Shown: positions 1 through 22,172, numbered from the stretch's first letter. The stretch: DNA of 42,549 nucleotides from Sulfobacillus benefaciens (GCA_003023725.1 PXYT01000031.1:1-42549); one strand, 5' to 3'. Made by a program: numbers and translations. Notes: a model not told the origin generated them from the sequence alone.

Positions 1-28
1 TTCAATTCCTCATAGGTAGGCTACAAAC
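1..28 (-). CRISPR. Leader-proximal CRISPR repeat, cut by the window edge
   Basis: Bases 1-28 match the usual type I-B repeat pattern. The plus strand reads TTCAATTCCTCATAGG followed by TAGGCTACAAAC, so two bases of a probable 30-nt repeat are missing at the left edge. Read on the minus strand it begins GTTTGTAGCC and ends GAATTGAA(AC), the ATTGAAAC-type end that gives the crRNA 5' handle in I-B systems. The array is therefore transcribed leftward, away from the cas genes. Only one repeat is visible, so no spacer can be read. Confidence 0.85.
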
Positions 29-11391: not shown

Positions 11392-12765
11392 TTATTGGGT
11401 GGCGGTTTCTTCTTCCGATACGCCAAGGGACTGGCGGCTCAGGACAGGACGCGGTTGTTTAAGGGTCAAGGTGAGTAGCGCCGCTACTATCCCCAAACAC
11501 CCTGCGAGAATATAACCACCCGTGTAGCCAAATGAGGAAATCATAATTGCCGAGGCTACACCACCGTAGATTCCGCCAACAATTTTGGCGGAATAGACGA
11601 CGCCATAATTCGAGGCATTGTTGGCTTCGCCGTAATAGTCGGGCGTAATGGTGGCAAAAAGCGGAAACAAAGCGCCACCTCCAAGACCGGCAAAGAAGGC
11701 AAAGAAAACGAAGAAGAACTCATTATGAGCCAACCCAGACGCTAACACGCCGAATTGAACCAGTCCTTCCATGGCAAAGAAGAGCGTCATGGCGTTTCTA
11801 CGGCCTATAAGATCGGAGACCCAACCCACGAACGCGCGTCCGCCGCCGTTCACGATAGCCAGCACACCGGCGGAGGCAGCGGCTACAAACGGTCCGAAAT
11901 GATCGTGTTTAGCAAAAGGTACATTGAAGCCGGTACCAAAGAGAGAGACTCCGGCAATCAGCACGAAGGTGATCCATAACACGTAAACCTGCCATGTCCC
12001 CATCATTTCTTTGGTGGTCCACTGTTTCACAGCCGGTGGATTGGCCCTTAAGGCACGGTTACGGCGGTCATCTTTCCACGTCAGGGGATTCACTTCTTTG
12101 GGCCACCAGTTCTTCGGAGGATCTTTCAAAAAGAAGCTGATAATGATAAGTCCTCCACCCAGAATCAAGCCGGTGAGATAGAGGATGGTGACAAAGTTGC
12201 TAGGGTGAAAGTAAAACGAAAACATGAAAATAAATGGCACCGAGCCATACGCATAGGCACCATTAACAAATCCTGTGCGCAGACCCTTTTTCTCAGGATA
12301 CCATTTACTGGTAATGTTAATCGCACTGGAATAAACCATTCCGGCGCCGAGTCCTCCAAGGGCTGCATAGCCAACATACGCGACCCAGAGCGCTTGAGAA
12401 TGCGCAAGAAAGTAGTAAGACAGAAGAACCATTATTCCACCGATTAACACGGCTCGTTTGACAGGCAAATAACCATGTTCGCGAAGCCACCCGGTCGGAT
12501 ACGAGGCACCAGCCTCAAAAATCACGTAAACCGTGTAATTCCAAAATGCGGCGACAAGGTTCCAATGGTACACATGGGCTAATGTGTGTTCGGCAGCTCC
12601 CCAGCCGTATTCGAAGGTGCTAATCAGAAACATTGCGATCCATGGGACTAAAATCATGACCCATCGTCCATAGCCCATGATTTGCTTGGGTGTTTCGCCG
12701 ACCCGGTAAACACGGCCGTTTTGATCCTTGACTTCACGATACGATGGCTCGGACGTATTCATCAT
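11392..12765 (-). CDS. MFS transporter, oxalate:formate antiporter family (OFA)
   Basis: This 457-residue membrane protein has about 12 transmembrane segments and reads as a member of the OFA branch of the MFS. Visible features are GGLGAGMVYSSAINITSKWYPEKKGLRTGFVNGAYAYGS in two parts around TM4-TM5, GRAFVGWVSDLIGRRN in the TM8-TM9 loop, and a TM11 Lys (YSAKIVGG, residue 394) equivalent to the substrate Lys of OxlT. The start ATG 12765 has GGGGG about ten bases upstream; an 18-residue longer form lacks support. Oxalate uptake in exchange for formate would fit the neighbouring Frc/Oxc/FDH genes. The exact substrate is inferred. Confidence 0.83.
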   Translation of the reverse strand: MMNTSEPSYREVKDQNGRVYRVGETPKQIMGYGRWVMILVPWIAMFLISTFEYGWGAAEHTLAHVYHWNLVAAFWNYTVYVIFEAGASYPTGWLREHGYLPVKRAVLIGGIMVLLSYYFLAHSQALWVAYVGYAALGGLGAGMVYSSAINITSKWYPEKKGLRTGFVNGAYAYGSVPFIFMFSFYFHPSNFVTILYLTGLILGGGLIIISFFLKDPPKNWWPKEVNPLTWKDDRRNRALRANPPAVKQWTTKEMMGTWQVYVLWITFVLIAGVSLFGTGFNVPFAKHDHFGPFVAAASAGVLAIVNGGGRAFVGWVSDLIGRRNAMTLFFAMEGLVQFGVLASGLAHNEFFFVFFAFFAGLGGGALFPLFATITPDYYGEANNASNYGVVYSAKIVGGIYGGVASAIMISSFGYTGGYILAGCLGIVAALLTLTLKQPRPVLSRQSLGVSEEETATQ

Positions 12766-12839
12766 TGCCGATTGTTCCCCCTTTACTATTGACTTTCGTG
12801 CAAAAAGCTCTTCAATCAATGCTCGTCCTTAGGTAAAAT

Positions 12840-14520: not shown

Positions 14521-15012
14521 TTATGACCACGCGGGATCAGGGTAGACAAAATAACTATGGTAACAGGCAATAACCCCCATCATTAAGGCCACCCCGGGTT
14601 CCATGTCTGCCAACTCCATTTCAAAACGTTCTCGGTGGATGCCGCGATCTTGTATCCATGCGGTGATACAGTGGTCATATACCTCCGCCTTCAGCCCACA
14701 GCCCATGAATCTGCCTCCGATAGTCCCCACAATGCGAGTGGAATTGCGGAGGTCGAGATAGAGCGTGTCCCCGAACACACTTCCACCGACACGGACCCGC
14801 AAGTCTTCCCCGGCACGGTAGCTCCCGCGAATCCTGCGCTTGAGCACATGTCCTCCGCAATGTCCTTCAATGATGCCAGAGCTGCTGATCCACAACATCA
14901 TATGCAATGGGCGTCCGCCTGCACTGAATTGCGCCCGAATAGCCTGACTGGTTTCGCTTTCAGCCCACAGGGGCGAACCCATGAGCCCAACACGGCCTAA
15001 CACGATTCCCAT
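14521..15012 (-). CDS. Conserved-looking protein of unknown function at the end of the fdh operon
   Basis: I do not recognise this 163-residue protein. It has no signal peptide or clear transmembrane helix and is rich in short beta-like runs with many glycines (SSSGIIEGHCGGHVLKRRIRG; GTIGGRFMGCGLKAEVYD). There are several cysteines (EGHCGGH, MGCGLK, HCITAW, IACYHS) but no standard metal motif. ATG 15012 has GGGGG nine bases upstream. It follows the iron-sulfur subunit gene by about 157 bases and precedes the strong terminator at 14462, so it is probably cotranscribed with the formate dehydrogenase. A role in its assembly is only a guess. Confidence 0.6.
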   Translation of the reverse strand: MGIVLGRVGLMGSPLWAESETSQAIRAQFSAGGRPLHMMLWISSSGIIEGHCGGHVLKRRIRGSYRAGEDLRVRVGGSVFGDTLYLDLRNSTRIVGTIGGRFMGCGLKAEVYDHCITAWIQDRGIHRERFEMELADMEPGVALMMGVIACYHSYFVYPDPAWS

Positions 15013-15168
15013 TGCGCCCATCCCCCTGTGCTCTTAGAGCACTCGCGCGAAAACCCCGTCTTGTCCTTGTCGGATCCCGGGTCAGCTCAATCGCTTTTTT
15101 GTGCTCCGTCCCGCGCCCCGCCCGGGGCAAGGCTAACGGTGCAACTCGCCCAAACGACGCCGAAATAT

Positions 15169-16020
15169 TCACGAATTGGATGCCAAGCCATCCTCGCTTT
15201 GAACAAATTCGTAACCATAGCGCCCCTTAACACAAAGCATCCCATGGGTGATGGGGTGGTCCATCGGCGAGGTCACTTTAACAATTTTATTGTCCATAAC
15301 GTGTAGCTGTAATTCACATCCGACCCCGCAGTAAGAACACACGGTCTCCGTGACGGAAATCTTATTCTCGTCCCACTGATCCTGATTCCGCATATCCCAC
15401 TCCGTCTTACCAATCAGGGCACCGGTCGGACAGACCGCGACGCAATTCCCACAATACACGCAGTCCGACTCAGGGAGATCCCGTCCAAATCCGGCATCGA
15501 TATGGGCATTAAATCCGCGACCGGCCACGGCAATAGCAAACGTGTTTTGTGCATCTGTTCCACAGGCCTCCACACAGCGGTAACACAGAATACACTTTGA
15601 AAAATCTCTCACATATAACTCGTTGTCCACACGCACCGGTTGTTCCCAGCTCGCTCCACCGGAAAAACGTCCGGCTTGCGCCCCCGACTCTTCGGCCAAA
15701 TGACGTAAATCAGGAGCCAATGTGGCATCGGAAGTGGAGAGTAACAGTTCGGCCACCACCTTGCGTGCATTGCGGACCCGTTCCGTATTGGTCATCACTT
15801 CCATGCCGTCCTCGGCGATCCGAGAGCAGGACGCAACAAGAGGCCGCGATCCTTTGAGCTCGACCACGCATGCCCGGCAAGCGTTGGCAGGCGACAAATT
15901 CTCATGCCAGCACAAAGTCGGAACGGAGTGACTGACCTGGTCACATGCCTCGCGCAGCGTTGTCCCCTGGGAGACACTCACCTCTTCACCGTCTATCGTC
16001 AGGGTTACGGAAGTCCCCAT
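15169..16020 (-). CDS. Formate dehydrogenase alpha subunit, N-terminal iron-sulfur half (split gene)
   Basis: The 283-residue protein is the electron-wire part of an NAD-linked formate dehydrogenase alpha subunit, encoded as a separate gene. It has a [2Fe-2S] domain (C37, C48, C51, C65), two [4Fe-4S] ferredoxin motifs (C143/146/149/153 and C187/190/193/197) and then the start of the molybdopterin enzyme proper (CSYCGVGC at 228-235 with C263 in MLCVKGRYGY). It stops at exactly the point where ordinary alpha subunits continue into the catalytic domain. That continuation, RLTTPLVRDNG, is the N-terminus of the gene at 17660-19678. The HxxxCxxC cluster usual between the [2Fe-2S] and ferredoxin domains is absent. 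ATG 16020 has AGGAGG seven bases upstream. Confidence 0.9.
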   Translation of the reverse strand: MGTSVTLTIDGEEVSVSQGTTLREACDQVSHSVPTLCWHENLSPANACRACVVELKGSRPLVASCSRIAEDGMEVMTNTERVRNARKVVAELLLSTSDATLAPDLRHLAEESGAQAGRFSGGASWEQPVRVDNELYVRDFSKCILCYRCVEACGTDAQNTFAIAVAGRGFNAHIDAGFGRDLPESDCVYCGNCVAVCPTGALIGKTEWDMRNQDQWDENKISVTETVCSYCGVGCELQLHVMDNKIVKVTSPMDHPITHGMLCVKGRYGYEFVQSEDGLASNS

Positions 16021-16049
16021 CTTCATTCCTCCTCGTACCCGTTGCCGGG

Positions 16050-17267
16050 TTAATCATGATGTCGCAGCTCGGGGCGGTCCAGTGCGGATAAAAGCGCCAG
16101 AGGTGCCGTCTGCCCTAGTCCGCAAATCGATGCATCCCGCATAGCCTGCCCCAGTTCCCGCAGATCTTGGGTCCTGGACCAGAGGTTCCCGGATTCCGCT
16201 ATCTCCAGAATCCTGCGAGTCCCGATCCGGCAGGGCACACACTGTCCGCACGATTCTTCGGCAAAAAACCGCGCCATTTTTGTTAACACCCAAGTCAAAT
16301 CCACCGTATCGTCGAAGACCATCATCGCACCTGAACCAATGCTGGCCCCCACTTTGCTCAACGACGGGTAGTCCAGAAGAGTGTTCTGTACTTCAGCTGC
16401 ATTCAGAAAGGTTCCGGCGGCCCCTCCCAGCAGCACAGCTCCCAAACGCCCTGTCCCTGCCACTGATCCCCCCAACTCCGGCGCGTTAAGAATGTCTGCC
16501 ACAGGGGTTCCGAAGGGTACTTCATAGACTCCCGGACGGTGAATATGACCGCTTAAGGCCACGAGTTTCGTACCCGGGGTATCTTTAGTGCCGTATGCTT
16601 TAAACCATTCCACATCGTGCGCGAACAAAACCGCAACATTGGCCAGCGTCTCCACATTTTGAATGAGGGTCGGAGAACCCCACAATCCCTTGTTTGTGGG
16701 AAACGGAGGCTTTACCCGCGGTTCCGGCCGCATGCCCTCGATGCTGTTGAACAAGGCCGTTTCCTCGCCAGCAATATAGGCTCCGGCACCCCGGCGGATT
16801 TCCACCTCCACCGTGTCCGGGCCTACCAAGCCGACTCTTCTCAAAGTCTCTATCGCGGCGGCCAGGACTTGCTCCACTTCGCGATATTCGCCGCGGATAT
16901 AACAAAAGGCTTTACGCGCCCCCACGGCGTGAGCGGCGATAACGAGCCCCGATAAAGGTCCCAACGGATCTTGTTCCAGCAAGACCCGATCTTTGAATGT
17001 GCCCAATTCGCTTTCGTCTGCATTCATGACAACATATTTTTGGGCACCAGGAGCCTGGGAAACCATCGACCATTTTAGGCCCGTGGGAAAGGCTGCGCCG
17101 CCCCGGCCTTTGATTCCGCTTTGGCTCACCTCGGCAATAATGTCCGAAGGGGTCATCAACATAGCCCGCGCCATGGCCCTCTCGAAACCCCGTTCGGTCA
17201 ACCGCTCCACGGAAGTGGGTCCGGACATGATACCCGTTTCGGGAAGAAGGCGACGAATTTCAGTCAT
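16050..17267 (-). CDS. fdsB: NAD-linked formate dehydrogenase beta subunit (NuoF/FdsB-like)
   Basis: This is the diaphorase subunit that takes electrons from the alpha subunit and reduces NAD+ through FMN. The 405-residue protein has the FMN/NADH site (GRGGAAFPTGLKW at 54-66; MNADESELGTFKDR at 81-94; RRGAGAYIAGEETAL). Four cysteines bind the [4Fe-4S] cluster (C340, C343, C346 in ESCGQCVPCRIGT, and C382 in SICGLGQTAP). It is shorter than many NuoF homologs because it lacks an N-terminal thioredoxin-like fusion; that domain is the preceding gene, with which it overlaps by eight bases. Confidence 0.93.
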   Translation of the reverse strand: MTEIRRLLPETGIMSGPTSVERLTERGFERAMARAMLMTPSDIIAEVSQSGIKGRGGAAFPTGLKWSMVSQAPGAQKYVVMNADESELGTFKDRVLLEQDPLGPLSGLVIAAHAVGARKAFCYIRGEYREVEQVLAAAIETLRRVGLVGPDTVEVEIRRGAGAYIAGEETALFNSIEGMRPEPRVKPPFPTNKGLWGSPTLIQNVETLANVAVLFAHDVEWFKAYGTKDTPGTKLVALSGHIHRPGVYEVPFGTPVADILNAPELGGSVAGTGRLGAVLLGGAAGTFLNAAEVQNTLLDYPSLSKVGASIGSGAMMVFDDTVDLTWVLTKMARFFAEESCGQCVPCRIGTRRILEIAESGNLWSRTQDLRELGQAMRDASICGLGQTAPLALLSALDRPELRHHD

Positions 17268-17709
17268 GGCGCACCTCCGTCACGGCCGTTTTCACCTCTT
17301 CGGGTGAGGCACGGCGCAAAACCTTGCCGCCAATCCATGCTGCCGGAGCATGGTCACACTGACCTAAACAAGCCGACTCCTTCACAGCAATCGGACGGTT
17401 AACCGCACTCTTTTCCGCCGCATCCTTGAGATTCTGTGCGCCCTGCAGAGCACACATCACATCCGTGCAGATATAGACCGGAACCCGGCCCTCCTCACCC
17501 TCAAAGAGGCTGTAGAACGACGCCACACCAAAGACCTCGGCAGAAGGCACGCCGAGGATCTTCGATACTGCTTCCATAGCGTCCTGGGAAAGGTAACCCT
17601 CGCTTTCGGCCACACGCCACAGAGCAGGAAGCAGTTGGGCCCGCTCCCTGGGCAAATCCTCAAGAAGAGCTGACACGACTTGGTAGACTGCCGAATTTTG
17701 AGTGTCCAT
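17260..17709 (-). CDS. fdsG: NAD-linked formate dehydrogenase gamma subunit (NuoE/FdsG-like)
   Basis: The 149-residue thioredoxin-fold [2Fe-2S] protein is homologous to NuoE and FdsG. The four ligands are C81 and C86 (ICTDVMCALQG) and C114 and C118 (ESACLGQCDHAPA). The N-terminal helical part (LLPALWRVAESEGYLSQDAM) and GVASFYSLF are family hallmarks. Its ATG 17709 has AGAGG just upstream and lies inside the catalytic-subunit gene, giving a 50-base overlap in a different frame. It donates or accepts electrons alongside the NuoF-like subunit. Confidence 0.93.
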   Translation of the reverse strand: MDTQNSAVYQVVSALLEDLPRERAQLLPALWRVAESEGYLSQDAMEAVSKILGVPSAEVFGVASFYSLFEGEEGRVPVYICTDVMCALQGAQNLKDAAEKSAVNRPIAVKESACLGQCDHAPAAWIGGKVLRRASPEEVKTAVTEVRHD

Positions 17710-19678
17710 CGGTATCCTCTTTTCTTATCCTTGATGACAGAGCATTGCTCGTCAAATCGCCATCGGCTGTGACGACCGCCACCCGTTCCAGCCTTACGGC
17801 CGCCGCTTTAAATTCTGCGGTTCCGGACCGCGGATCCGTGGCATCAATCGTCAACAGGTTGGTCATGACTTCATCCGGAAAATGAAACGTCATAAAGACC
17901 GTTCCTGGCATGACCGTTTCCGACAGCCGCACCGGAACCTCCAGTTGCCCCCGCCTGGAAACGACTGCAATGACTTCGCCATCCTCAATGCCCAGCATTT
18001 GAGCATCTTGGGGATGAATCTCCATCCATTCGCCTGTGTTGTGGGGATGATGATAAACATTGGACTGCACGCCCGTGTTATAGAAAGCGAGACGGCGCCC
18101 CGTTGTCAGAAGAAAAGGATATTCCTTGGAAACTTGCTCGGCCGGAGGCATCCATTCCACAGGGTTAAAGGGAGCTTTCTGGGAAACGTTTTCGGCCCAC
18201 AGCCGCTCATGCAACACTTTTGTGCCGGGATGCCCTTCCTCGGGAACTGGCCACTGCAATCCGTGTTCCTTTTCCAACCGATCATAAGTCATACCCCGGT
18301 AATTGGTAGTCAAAAGCCGCATCTCGTCGAAAACCTCTTCAGCTTCCTGCAAACGCCAGTTATGTCCCATTTTACGCGCCAAGGACGCCACAATCCACAA
18401 ATCGTCCTGGGCCTGACCAGGCGCCCGGCGAGCCGCTTTGACCCTTTGAACCCGGCGTTCGCTATTCGTGTAAGTTCCCTCACTTTCAGCGAACGACACG
18501 CGAGCGGGAAACACGACATCAGCCATTTCTGCCGTCGCCGTCAAGAATATATCTTGGACAACCAATGCATTCAGGCTCTCAAACAAATGCCGCACATACT
18601 CACTGTTTGCCTCGGACTGAATCGGATTTTCACCAATGACGTACAACCCCCGCATGCGTCCATGCTCGATGGCTTCAAACATTCTCGTTTGGTCCCATCC
18701 GGGCTGTTCCGCAATCGGCACGCCCCATGCCCGGGAAAATTTTTCTCGGACGGCCGGGTCCGACAAATCTTGAAACCCTGGCAATCTGTTGGGCAGTGCG
18801 CCCATGTCTCCCCCGCCTTGCACGTTGTTCTGTCCGCGAAAAGGACTGAGCCCCGAACCTGGGCGCCCGACGTTGCCGCACAAAAGGGCCAGATTAATCA
18901 ATGCCAGCACATTGTCCACGGCATTATGGTGCTCCGTAATTCCCAAGGTCCAGCCGATGATGGCCGTCGGGGCTTGCGCATAGCGATGCGCCAAGGACTC
19001 AATCTGCTCCGCAGAAATTCCCGTAATGGCAGAAGCCCGCTGTGGCGTCCACGTCTTAACACTGGCGGCATATTCTTCAAATCCTTCTGTCGCCCTGTTG
19101 ACGAAATCCTTATGGTATAAGCCGTCCCGTATAATGACGTGAGCCAAAGCATTAGCCAATGCAATGTCCGATCCCACCGCAATTTGCAGGTGCTCACGGG
19201 CTTTTTGGGCCGTCAATGTCTTGCGGGGATCCACCACGACCAATTCGGCGCCGTTATGCACCCCTTTCATGATGTGGTGGAAGATAATAGGATGCGCCTC
19301 CGCCACATTGGCACCCACCAGCAAAATGAATGCCGTGTGATGAAAATCTTCATAAGAGCTTGTTCCTGCGCCACTTCCAAATACGGCCGTGAGACCCACG
19401 ACCGAAGGAGCGTGTCACGTTCTGTTGCACGAATCGATATTGTGTGTGCCGAAAACGACCCGGGCAAATTTCGAAGCTAAATAATTTAATTCATTTGTCG
19501 ATTTGGAACAGCTGAATACCCCTAAACCATTTGGGCCATACTCGCTCTTGACGCCTTCGAACAATCGAGCGGCTCTCGTTAATGCCTCTTCCCAGCTAGC
19601 CGGACGCAATTGCCCGTTATCCCGAACCAAAGGCGTAGTCAGTCTCATCTGTCCGGATTTTCGCTTGTTCAAAGCCAT
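17660..19678 (-). CDS. fdhA: Selenocysteine-containing formate dehydrogenase catalytic subunit (C-terminal part of a split alpha subunit)
   Basis: This is the molybdenum/tungsten bis-MGD catalytic part that oxidises formate to CO2. It is one reading frame of 672 residues interrupted by a TGA at 19415-19417. The residues around the TGA read IDSCNRT-[TGA]-HAPSVVGLTAVFGSG, which is exactly the active-site Sec/Cys-His of FdhF-type enzymes, so the TGA is read as Sec88. A SECIS-like hairpin follows (19385-19403). It starts MALNKRKSGQMRLTTPLVRDNGQ in pieces, i.e. at the point in normal alpha subunits just after the first [4Fe-4S] domain, which here is encoded at 15169-16020. Together the parts give about 955 residues, normal for the family. 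GGGGG precedes ATG 19678. Confidence 0.92.
19385..19403 (-). promoter_or_regulatory. Bacterial SECIS hairpin downstream of the UGA
   Basis: In the mRNA the stem GGUCGUG pairs with CACGGCC and closes a GGUCU loop. Counting the U of UGA as 1, G15, G16, U17 and the loop G22-G23-U24-C25-U26 fall at the same positions as in the E. coli fdhF SECIS (recalled from the literature), whose loop also carries AGGUCU. This is the SelB-binding signal expected for Sec insertion. Confidence 0.88.
19415..19417 (-). other. Selenocysteine codon (TGA) of fdhA
   Basis: The in-frame TGA is codon 88 of the catalytic subunit. Reading continues in the same frame for 584 further codons of intact homologous protein, and the next codon is the catalytic His (CAC). 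Recoding rather than a nonsense mutation is the straightforward reading. Confidence 0.92.
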
Positions 19679-19742: not shown

Positions 19743-20186
19743 TCACTTCGAAGTAGACTGCGCCTGACACAACGCAAGATCTTTCTTTAACTTGCGCATT
19801 TCCTGAAATTGTTGGGACACGTCCCGCATTACCGCGGCAATGCCCATCATTTGTCCAGAGTCGTCATGAAATGGCAAAATGGTGAACTCGACCGAGATCC
19901 TGGAACCGTCCTTGCGAATAGCCGGTACCGCCAGCAAAGCCCCCGCCTCATAGTGACTTTTGCCCGTACGCATGGTGGTCTCAAAACCGTCCCAATGCCG
20001 GCGACGCAAATTTTCCGGGATGATAATGTCGAGCGATTGTCCTAGGGCTTCGGATTGTTCAAAACCGAATATTCGCTTGGCACCCTCATTCCAGAAGAGA
20101 ATATTGCCGCTTGCGTTGGCATAGACGACTGCGTCGGACATGTGTTCAACCAGGCTTACCGCGAATCGTGTTTCGTCCCAATCCAT
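19743..20186 (-). CDS. Single PAS-domain protein
   Basis: The 147-residue cytosolic protein consists of one PAS domain (VEHMSDAVVYANASGNILFWNEGAKRIFGF in two parts, then EALGQSLDIIIPENLRRRHWDGF) with a PAC-like end (FHDDSGQMMGIAAVMRDVS) and a short C-terminal helix, probably a coiled coil. There is no kinase, cyclase or DNA-binding output. ATG 20186 has GGGGAG six bases upstream; a longer form from 20252 lacks this. It lies between oxc and fdhA in the same direction. It may sense redox state or a ligand for the pathway, but its partner is unknown. Confidence 0.82.
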   Translation of the reverse strand: MDWDETRFAVSLVEHMSDAVVYANASGNILFWNEGAKRIFGFEQSEALGQSLDIIIPENLRRRHWDGFETTMRTGKSHYEAGALLAVPAIRKDGSRISVEFTILPFHDDSGQMMGIAAVMRDVSQQFQEMRKLKKDLALCQAQSTSK

Positions 20187-20404
20187 GTAAATCTCCCCTT
20201 TGTGCCGGAACGCATCTTCACGACTGCCTCCCGTCCCCTGTAAAGCCATCACCCGGTAGCAGGGGTGGGTTCACCGGTTCCGGATCTCTTCAGTCAGCTT
20301 CGCCCTGTGTTCCGGTTTTACGCGAAAACAGGGGCATTCCGCGAACCAGTGTCCACATCCGCATTTACCGACGAAAAAACAGCCTGAGCCGTGCGGAAAA
20401 CCCC

Positions 20405-22087
20405 CTACTTGGTTAACCCGCTTTTCGGATTCAGGCCCTGTATATGTCCGCTTTCGGTACCAGCCGTCGGGTCGATGACGCAGTTAATCAAAGTCGGCTC
20501 CCCGGACTCCAAGGCCTCATATAACGAACGCGAGAGGCTCGCAGTGTCACTCACGTGGTATCCCCGGCCACCAAAAGCTTCTATTATTTTATCATAGCGT
20601 GCAGTGGCCAGTAACCCCGTCGGCGAGGGAGGGCTGCCTTCCGGATCTCCCCGGTAAATACCACCGTTATTGAACACCACGGTAACCACCGGCAAATGGT
20701 AACGGCAAATGGTTTCCAGTTCCATGCCGTCAAAACCGAAAGCGCTATCTCCTTCGATCGCGACGACCGGTTGTCCACTCTCGGCACTCGCGGCAATAGC
20801 ATAGCCCATGCCGATACCCATTATGCCCCAGGTTCCGGTGTCTAGGCGCCTTCGCGGCTCGGACATGTCAATGATGTTTCGGGCAAAGTCGAGTGTGTTC
20901 GCGCCCTCGTTGACAACATAGACATCAGGCCGGTTGGACAGAACATCACGGATGGCGCGCAAGGCACTGGAGAAATTCATCGGATTGGGATCAGCATTGA
21001 GGCGCACGGCCATTTTTTCGATGTTTTTTTGCTTTTTTTGGGTAATTCCCTCGAGCCACTCGTAGCTAGGCTGAATGGCATTCGGCTCGAGGGACTCAAG
21101 AAAAGCGGCCATGGATGACTTGATGTCGCCGACAACCGGTGCCGCGATCGGGCGGTTACTGTCCATCTCCGCCGCCGAAATGTCGATCTGCACGTATTGA
21201 GTACTTTCCGACCATAAAGGACTTTTGCCATGCGACAACAACCAGTTCAGACGTGCTCCGATTAACATCACAACGTCTGCCTGTCCTATGGCAAAAGATC
21301 GCGCAGCCGCAGCAGACAATGGATGCGTATCGGGCAGTATCCCTTTGGCCATCGACATAGGCAGAAAGGGAATCCCTGTGGTTTCGATAAATGTGCGAAT
21401 ATCTTGGTCCGCCTGCGCATAAGCCGCGCCTTTGCCCAGAATAATCAGAGGACGTTTGGCTGTTTTCAACAAATCCAGAGCTCGTCTCACCGATTGCGGC
21501 GACGGCGGCTGACTGGGTGCCGGATCGACAACTTTAATCAGCGAGTGTCTGGCCGTTTCCACGTCAATCGTGGAGCCCAACACCTTTGCCGTCAGATCGA
21601 GATAGACTCCGCCTGGGCGCCCGGAAACCGCCGCGCGAATTGCGCGGGCCACCCCTACGCCGATATCTTCAGGGTTATTCACACGAAATGCTGCCTTGGC
21701 AAACGGTTTAGCAGCATTCAGCTGGTCAATTTCCTCGTAGTCTCCTTGCTGCAAATCCACTATAGCCCGATCACTGGATCCGCTGATGAGAATCATCGGG
21801 AAGCAGTTGGTCGTGGCGTTGGCCAGAGCAACCAATCCATTTAAAAATCCCGGGCCGGAAACCGTCAGACAAACTCCGGGTTTCTGGGTCAAGTACCCGG
21901 CAATCGACGCCGCGTGACCTGCGCTTTGTTCATGACGAAAACCAAAATACCGGATTCCCTCCGCCTGTGCCAAACGGGCCAAATCGGTTATGGGAATGCC
22001 GGCGACCCCGTATATGGTATCCAGCCCATTCAGTTTCAGAGCATCGACAACCAGATGAAAGCCATCAGTCAAGTCTGGCAATGCCAT
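20405..22087 (-). CDS. oxc: Oxalyl-CoA decarboxylase
   Basis: This thiamine-diphosphate enzyme converts oxalyl-CoA to formyl-CoA and CO2. The 560-residue protein has the three domains of the TPP decarboxylase family. The N-terminal catalytic Glu is in [15 protein letters not shown] (E53). A central domain follows ([16 protein letters not shown]). The C-terminal TPP-binding motif is [15 protein letters not shown] ending in NNGG (about residues 440-470). The [15 protein letters not shown] start is typical of Oxc. ATG 22087 has GGGGGG about seven bases upstream. It is 183 bases downstream of frc in the same direction. Confidence 0.94.
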
Positions 22088-22172
22088 TTTTGTCCCCCCT
22101 CGTCTACTGTTCAACCGTCTTCTTTGGCGATTGTCTTATCTTCACACCGTAACACGGTGCCATTGGTCACCG

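What the first reader, a model, noticed from the sequence alone, without database searches (positions are those of the whole stretch)
15169..19678. Formate dehydrogenase alpha subunit is split and the operon is circularly permuted
The alpha subunit is encoded as two genes at the two ends of the operon: catalytic C-terminal part (17660-19678), NuoE-like, NuoF-like, then the N-terminal iron-sulfur part (15169-16020). The usual order in NAD-linked formate dehydrogenases is NuoE-like, NuoF-like, alpha. Joining the end of this operon to its beginning recreates that order and a continuous alpha subunit: the N-part ends EFVQSEDGLASNS where homologs read FVxSxDRL, and the C-part begins with RLTTPL. 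This fits tandem duplication of an ordinary operon followed by loss of the outer halves. The split falls inside the domain holding the [4Fe-4S] cluster next to the molybdopterin, so two polypeptides must complete one cofactor pocket. I do not know a described case.
Basis: partly seen in the sequence, partly recalled or inferred. Interest (0 to 1): 0.82.

Follow-up and report, generated by a model that had tools for sequence, protein, structure and literature searches.

The report
Formate dehydrogenase with split catalytic subunit
A selenium-containing enzyme that oxidises formate has its core subunit encoded as two separate proteins at opposite ends of the operon, and this arrangement, which I did not find described in the literature I could search, recurs with the same break point in bacteria of at least eleven phyla.

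Summary
On the minus strand the operon reads C-part (19678-17660), NuoE-like, NuoF-like, N-part (16020-15169). The N-part holds the NuoG-like iron-sulfur region and the whole [4Fe-4S] domain next to the molybdopterin site; the C-part holds the rest of FdhA.

The same break and gene order occur in 100 distinct loci of at least 11 phyla, including complete genomes. Eight genomes have no other FdhA-like gene. Split forms make one clade in the C and N trees. All 100 split N-parts lack the His/Cys3 [4Fe-4S] motif that 49 of 50 other NuoG-bearing FdhA loci keep. In six Acidimicrobiia-type loci two opposite-strand genes separate the halves, so the halves must meet as proteins.

I read it as a working NAD-linked formate dehydrogenase with a two-chain catalytic subunit, fed here by oxalate breakdown. 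The break lies at the end of the Fe4S4 domain, not inside it. Circular permutation is possible, but a mosaic origin is equally open. New variant of a known kind; no biochemical proof exists.

The parts
17660..19678 (-). C-part of FdhA: selenocysteine-containing catalytic polypeptide, 672 aa, starting MALNKRKSGQM|RLTTPL
   Evidence: PF00384 and PF01568; TIGR01591 686 bits, cut-off 666; aligns to FdhF 60-693 and FdsA 306-931
19415..19417 (-). In-frame TGA, predicted selenocysteine (residue 88)
   Evidence: Aligns with Sec140 of FdhF; TGA at this site in 97 of 100 split loci, Cys in 3; tRNA-Sec and selB in the genome
19384..19404 (-). SECIS-like hairpin with GGUCU loop
   Evidence: the same loop sequence predicted in 81 of 97 split loci
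17260..17709 (-). NuoE-like thioredoxin-fold [2Fe-2S] subunit
   Evidence: PF01257
16050..17267 (-). NuoF-like FMN/NAD/[4Fe-4S] subunit
   Evidence: PF01512, PF10589
15169..16020 (-). N-part of FdhA: [2Fe-2S], two ferredoxin-type [4Fe-4S], and the Mo-proximal Fe4S4 domain; ends EFVQSEDGLASNS. The ORF list starts it at 16026; ATG 16020 has better spacing from the GAGGAGG site
   Evidence: PF13510, PF00037, PF04879; aligns to FdsA 21-308
15199..15357 (-). Molybdop_Fe4S4 domain carried by the N-part (C230, C233, C237, C265, K267, numbered from ATG 16026)
   Evidence: these residues are invariant in 27 aligned N-parts
20405..22114 (-). Oxalyl-CoA decarboxylase, upstream (metabolic context)
   Evidence: TIGR03254 971 bits
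22271..23521 (-). Formyl-CoA transferase, upstream (releases formate)
   Evidence: TIGR03253 735 bits
19743..20252 (-). Single-domain PAS protein between the oxalyl-CoA decarboxylase gene and the C-part
   Evidence: conserved at this place in relatives
11392..12819 (-). MFS transporter related to oxalate/formate antiporters (below the family cut-offs)

Best explanation
This is a working NAD-linked, selenocysteine-containing formate dehydrogenase whose catalytic alpha subunit is made of two polypeptides. The C-part binds the Mo/W bis-pyranopterin cofactor and carries Sec88, His89 and Arg281. The N-part caps it with the proximal [4Fe-4S] cluster and passes electrons through two ferredoxin-type clusters and a [2Fe-2S] cluster to NuoE/NuoF and FMN/NAD+. 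Here it oxidises formate released by oxalate breakdown. Shown from sequence: the split site, its conservation, the cofactor and catalytic residues, Sec insertion signals, co-inheritance, and absence of an alternative FdhA in several genomes. Inferred: physical assembly, metal, NAD+ as acceptor, direction of reaction. The split most likely arose once and spread over many phyla, by vertical descent, transfer, or both.
For: Domains are complementary: the N-part aligns to FdsA 21-308 and the C-part to 306-931 of the same chain. The C-part model superposes on FDH-H (TM 0.87/0.82) and FdsA (TM 0.87 by query). Catalytic residues U88=Sec140, H89=H141, R281=R333, invariant in 27 C-parts (the tool shows Sec as C). 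Cluster cysteines and K267 invariant in 27 N-parts. Same split site and C-E-F-N order in 100 distinct loci of 11 named phyla. Split forms are one clade in the C tree (SH-aLRT 98; 85/88 in a smaller careful tree) and the N tree (93). N and C distances co-vary, r = 0.87 against at most 0.08 when permuted. Eight genomes, one of them a single contig, have no other protein above about 180 bits to the FdhA model. Sec machinery present.
Against: No experiment. No multimer prediction was possible, and the N-part model is poor (mean pLDDT 64), so the interface is not modelled. The own genome also carries a continuous 1029-aa FdhA-like protein (C90, 32% to the C-part), but without E/F neighbours and of the ForC/YjgC kind. 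Co-inheritance shows partnership, not contact.
Confidence: 0.85

Rival explanations
1. On origin: circular permutation. An ordinary E-F-FdhA operon was duplicated in tandem (or excised and re-inserted as a circle) and the outer halves were lost, leaving C-E-F-N.
For: C-E-F-N is a cyclic rotation of E-F-N-C. Unsplit relatives often have E-F-FdhA in that order, and the nearest N-part relative, G131, has EF-U-A. The C data do not reject split + short + G131 as one group (p-AU 0.25).
Against: No intermediate or remnant was found. Best trees give the N-part and its Fe4S4 domain to a G131-like lineage (100; 94/88) but the C-part to Bacillaceae-type short FDHs (100/100).
Confidence: 0.4
2. On origin: mosaic. 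An E-F-N unit from a G131-like operon, ending just after the Fe4S4 domain, was combined with the catalytic part of a different, short Sec-FdhA that had lost its own Fe4S4 domain.
For: Fe4S4 identity to split forms is 0.58 for G131 against 0.39 for short FDHs; C-part identity is the reverse, 0.47 against 0.55. C data reject split + G131 without the short forms (p-AU 1e-8). G131 also shares loss of the His/Cys3 motif with split N-parts.
Against: Only 48 columns in the Fe4S4 domain; grouping split with short there is not rejected (p-AU 0.18). The short Fe4S4 domain may simply have evolved fast after losing its NuoG-like neighbour.
Confidence: 0.4
3. The N-part belongs to another enzyme (complex I NuoG or a HoxU/HydA-like subunit) and the C-part works without it.
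For: The N-part's best PDB match, by a hair, is HydA1 (150.6 bits against 150.4 for FdsA). NuoG also carries a Mo-like Fe4S4 domain.
Against: The genome has its own NuoG (C76, 31% identity). The C-part has no Fe4S4 domain of its own. N follows C-E-F in the split loci, and small genomes such as G035 keep only this pair.
Confidence: 0.04
4. The halves are joined after transcription or translation (split intein, trans-splicing intron).
For: None beyond the split itself.
Against: No intein or intron sequence: N-part tails after CVKGRYG are short (median 11 aa) and unconserved, C-part heads are short in the ORFs read, and Rfam finds no intron in the window.
Confidence: 0.02
5. Assembly error, frameshift or decaying gene.
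For: The window is from a draft assembly; a second C-part copy on contig C46 has a broken E gene and no F or N.
Against: Same structure in complete genomes and 100 distinct loci.
Confidence: 0.01

Closest known systems
NAD+-dependent Mo-FDH FdsABG of Rhodobacter capsulatus (6tg9)
   Same: NuoE-like + NuoF-like + FdhA with NuoG-like N-terminal region; N-part and C-part align to adjoining ranges of FdsA
   Different: FdsA is one chain with Cys at the active site; the split enzyme has two chains, usually Sec, and lacks the His/Cys3 cluster motif
Clostridial Sec-FdhA with NuoE/NuoF-like partners
   Same: Sec, NuoG-like region, E and F partners, about 900 aa in total
   Different: One continuous chain; keeps the His/Cys3 motif; 44-48% identity
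E. coli FDH-H (FdhF) and HDCR FdhF
   Same: Catalytic residues, fold of the C-part
   Different: Their Fe4S4 domain is fused to the catalytic chain and there is no NuoG-like region in it
Formylmethanofuran dehydrogenase FwdB/FwdD (from memory, not tested)
   Same: A Mo/W-bisPGD enzyme whose catalytic subunit is also divided between two polypeptides
   Different: There the C-terminal dinucleotide-binding domain is the separate chain, not the N-terminal Fe4S4 part
Sulfobacillus Sec-FDH noted by Justice et al. 2014 (PMC4378227)
   Same: Same genes: Sec-containing catalytic subunit syntenous with NuoEFG-like genes
   Different: In the passages read, the paper does not mention that the NuoG-like gene carries FdhA's Fe4S4 domain or that FdhA is split

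Membership tests
NAD-linked Mo/W-bisPGD formate dehydrogenase (FdsABG / clostridial type) | NuoE-like and NuoF-like partner subunits in the operon | tested here: met
   PF01257, PF01512, PF10589; found between C and N in the split loci
NAD-linked Mo/W-bisPGD formate dehydrogenase (FdsABG / clostridial type) | Catalytic Sec/Cys, His, Arg | tested here: met
   U88, H89, R281 align with FdhF U140, H141, R333; invariant
NAD-linked Mo/W-bisPGD formate dehydrogenase (FdsABG / clostridial type) | Alpha subunit as one chain with NuoG-like region, Fe4S4 domain and catalytic part | tested here: not met
   Two genes, break between PF04879 and PF00384
NAD-linked Mo/W-bisPGD formate dehydrogenase (FdsABG / clostridial type) | His/Cys3 [4Fe-4S] motif in the NuoG-like region | tested here: not met
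   Absent in 100 of 100 split N-parts; present in 49 of 50 comparison loci, absent only in G131
NAD-linked Mo/W-bisPGD formate dehydrogenase (FdsABG / clostridial type) | NAD+-linked formate oxidation activity | not testable with these tools
   No experiment
Formate dehydrogenase alpha, TIGR01591 | Score above curated cut-off (666 bits) | tested here: met
   C-part alone 686 bits over positions 52-671; the missing positions 1-54 are on the N-part, 58 bits
Bacterial selenoprotein | In-frame UGA at the Sec site, hairpin just after it, tRNA-Sec and SelB in the genome | tested here: met
Complex I NuoG | N-part groups with NuoG rather than with FdhA | tested here: not met
   31% to own NuoG; split N-parts group with G131's FDH operon at 100; deeper forks unresolved

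The most novel reading that the evidence does not exclude
The split lets one E-F-N electron-transfer module serve interchangeable catalytic subunits. In this genome a second intact Sec C-part (contig C46, 71% identical) has lost its F and N and has a broken E, and no second N-part was found, so it could only work by borrowing the module encoded in the window. The enzyme itself may have begun this way, as a mosaic of two FDH lineages joined exactly at the domain boundary.
Probability: 0.25. Interest if true: 0.78.

Novelty: new variant of a known kind. Interest (0 to 1): 0.64.

Why it matters
Mo/W formate dehydrogenases are studied as CO2-reduction catalysts, and their catalytic subunit is normally one chain. 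Here nature divides it between the proximal iron-sulfur domain and the metal site, with one cluster motif missing, in a clade of at least 11 phyla that includes cultured genera such as Sulfobacillus and Saccharopolyspora. That gives a natural two-piece system in which to test how the proximal cluster, the electron relay and the active site can be assembled or swapped. It also means that annotation pipelines may misname these genes: the Sec codon truncates the C-part in an ordinary ORF call, and the N-part looks like NuoG.

Tried and rejected
Chance, assembly error and decay: rejected by recurrence in complete genomes. A full-length FdhA serving the operon: rejected in eight genomes that have no other FdhA-like gene; in the own genome C90 is a distant ForC/YjgC-like protein. 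N-part as complex I NuoG: rejected. Intein or intron: no sequence evidence. My own first reading of G131 as a continuous FdhA was wrong: a TGA separates its iron-sulfur gene from FdhA, so it is EF-U-A with a different break. Structure of the N-part: poor model, TM 0.37 to FdsA, not used as evidence. A first attempt at a tree with NuoG used the wrong strand and was redone. Plasmid search gave only short stray matches.

Full report
WHAT IS THERE. The minus strand of 23521-15169 reads formyl-CoA transferase, oxalyl-CoA decarboxylase, a PAS protein, then C-part, NuoE-like, NuoF-like, N-part. The C-part is broken in an ordinary ORF list by an in-frame TGA at 19417-19415; read through it is 672 aa. 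The residue aligns with Sec140 of E. coli FdhF, the next with His141, and R281 with Arg333. A hairpin with a GGUCU loop follows the TGA. The genome has tRNA-Sec above the Rfam cut-off and SelB above its cut-off.

WHERE THE BREAK IS. The N-part carries a [2Fe-2S] domain, ferredoxin-type [4Fe-4S] motifs and the Molybdop_Fe4S4 domain (PF04879, profile 2-54 of 55); the C-part starts at position 1 of PF00384. Against FdsA (6tg9) the N-part covers 21-308 and the C-part 306-931. So the break is at the boundary between two domains. All four cysteine ligands and the lysine two residues after the last one (K267) are on the N-part. The two chains must still meet at one cofactor site.

HOW FAR IT REACHES. 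Searches of 40 relatives gave the same split and the same order C-E-F-N in nearly every genome with this enzyme, including one- to three-contig genomes. A class-wide search added more families. A scan of one genome per species added Acidobacteriota, Actinomycetota, Chloroflexota, Gemmatimonadota, Planctomycetota, Myxococcota, Spirochaetota, Rokuibacteriota, Dormiibacterota and Vulcanimicrobiota, next to Bacillota. In all, 108 records (100 distinct loci) have C first and N after it on the same strand; none had a separate N before C. Two more, from the phylum-wide search, agree. The scan kept only the best 80 loci, so counts by phylum are lower bounds. Many are metagenome-assembled genomes whose labels may be wrong. 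The site is TGA in 97 and Cys in 3 of 100 split loci; the Cys loci are Saccharopolyspora (two) and Lentzea.

IT IS ONE KIND OF ENZYME. In the C tree split forms are one clade (SH-aLRT 98; 85/88 in a smaller careful tree), in the N tree one clade (93); in the F tree they group with G131 at 99. N and C distances correlate at 0.87 against at most 0.08 in permutations. All 100 split N-parts tested lack the H-x3-C-x2-C-x5-C motif that binds a His-ligated [4Fe-4S] cluster in NuoG-type proteins; 49 of 50 comparison loci have it, and the exception is G131. So the split enzyme probably has one cluster fewer. That the motif binds the complex I N5 equivalent is established knowledge, not tested here.

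THE HALVES ACT AS SEPARATE PROTEINS. In six Acidimicrobiia-type loci two opposite-strand genes stand between the C-part and the EF-N genes, so the parts cannot come from one simple transcript there. N-part tails are short and variable, C-part heads are short in the loci read, and Rfam shows no intron. Eight genomes (G009, G014, G015, G022, G023, G026, G035, G038) have nothing else above about 180 bits to the FdhA model, so no hidden full-length FdhA does the work there.

HOW IT MOST LIKELY WORKS. Formate is oxidised at the Mo/W-Sec site of the C-part. Electrons go to the N-part's proximal [4Fe-4S] cluster, through two ferredoxin-type clusters and a [2Fe-2S] cluster to NuoE/NuoF, and reduce NAD+. 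In this window formate would come from oxalyl-CoA and formyl-CoA. The oxalate genes accompany the split operon in several relatives but are absent from many other copies, so the enzyme is not tied to oxalate. The pathway step is inference from gene content.

HOW IT AROSE. Continuous E-F-FdhA operons are common outside. The nearest N-part relative, G131, has fused EF, then an iron-sulfur gene, then FdhA with its Fe4S4 domain. But the C-part's sister is a group of short Bacillaceae FDHs (100/100), while the Fe4S4 domain's nearest is G131 (94/88). C data reject split + G131 alone (p-AU 1e-8) but not split + short + G131 (0.25); Fe4S4 data do not reject split + short (0.18). So permutation and mosaic origin both remain open.

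WHAT IS KNOWN. Justice et al. 2014 (PMC4378227) reported Sec-containing FDHs next to NuoEFG-like genes in all Sulfobacillus genomes; the passages read do not mention a split. Ten full-text searches found no description of a split FdhA. The library lacks most subscription papers, so an earlier description cannot be excluded. From memory, formylmethanofuran dehydrogenase (FwdB/FwdD) is a precedent for dividing such a subunit, at its other end.

LIMITS. No biochemical evidence, no complex model, and a poor N-part model. The trees are partly quick searches.

Noticed in passing
L022:8538-10859 (genome contig C46): A second, intact Sec-containing C-part (71% identical) with a broken E gene and no F or N nearby; no second N-part was found in the genome.
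   Followed up: partly
window 15169-16020 and other split N-parts: The His/Cys3 [4Fe-4S] motif is missing in all split N-parts tested and in G131, but present in the other 49 comparison loci.
   Followed up: yes
L196, L197, L203, L204, L218, L225: Two opposite-strand genes (an NADPH:quinone-reductase-like and a phytanoyl-CoA-dioxygenase-like protein, named by eye) separate the C-part from the EF-N genes; E and F are fused in these loci.
   Followed up: partly
L147:6064-10883 (G131): Related operon with a different break: fused EF, an iron-sulfur gene ending at TGA 8823, then FdhA with Cys and its own Fe4S4 domain starting three bases after that stop.
   Followed up: yes
window 19743-20252: A single-domain PAS protein is conserved between the oxalyl-CoA decarboxylase gene and the C-part in relatives that carry the oxalate genes; role unknown.
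   Followed up: no
window 1-28: CRISPR repeat-like match (RF01315) at the contig edge; no further copies in the first 1500 bases.
   Followed up: partly
window 14521-15021: A 166-aa ORF just downstream of the N-part with no Pfam or NCBIfam match, conserved in several relatives.
   Followed up: no
L186 (G006 contig C35): Remnant of another N-part with stop codons in a close relative, suggesting repeated gain and loss of operon copies.
   Followed up: no
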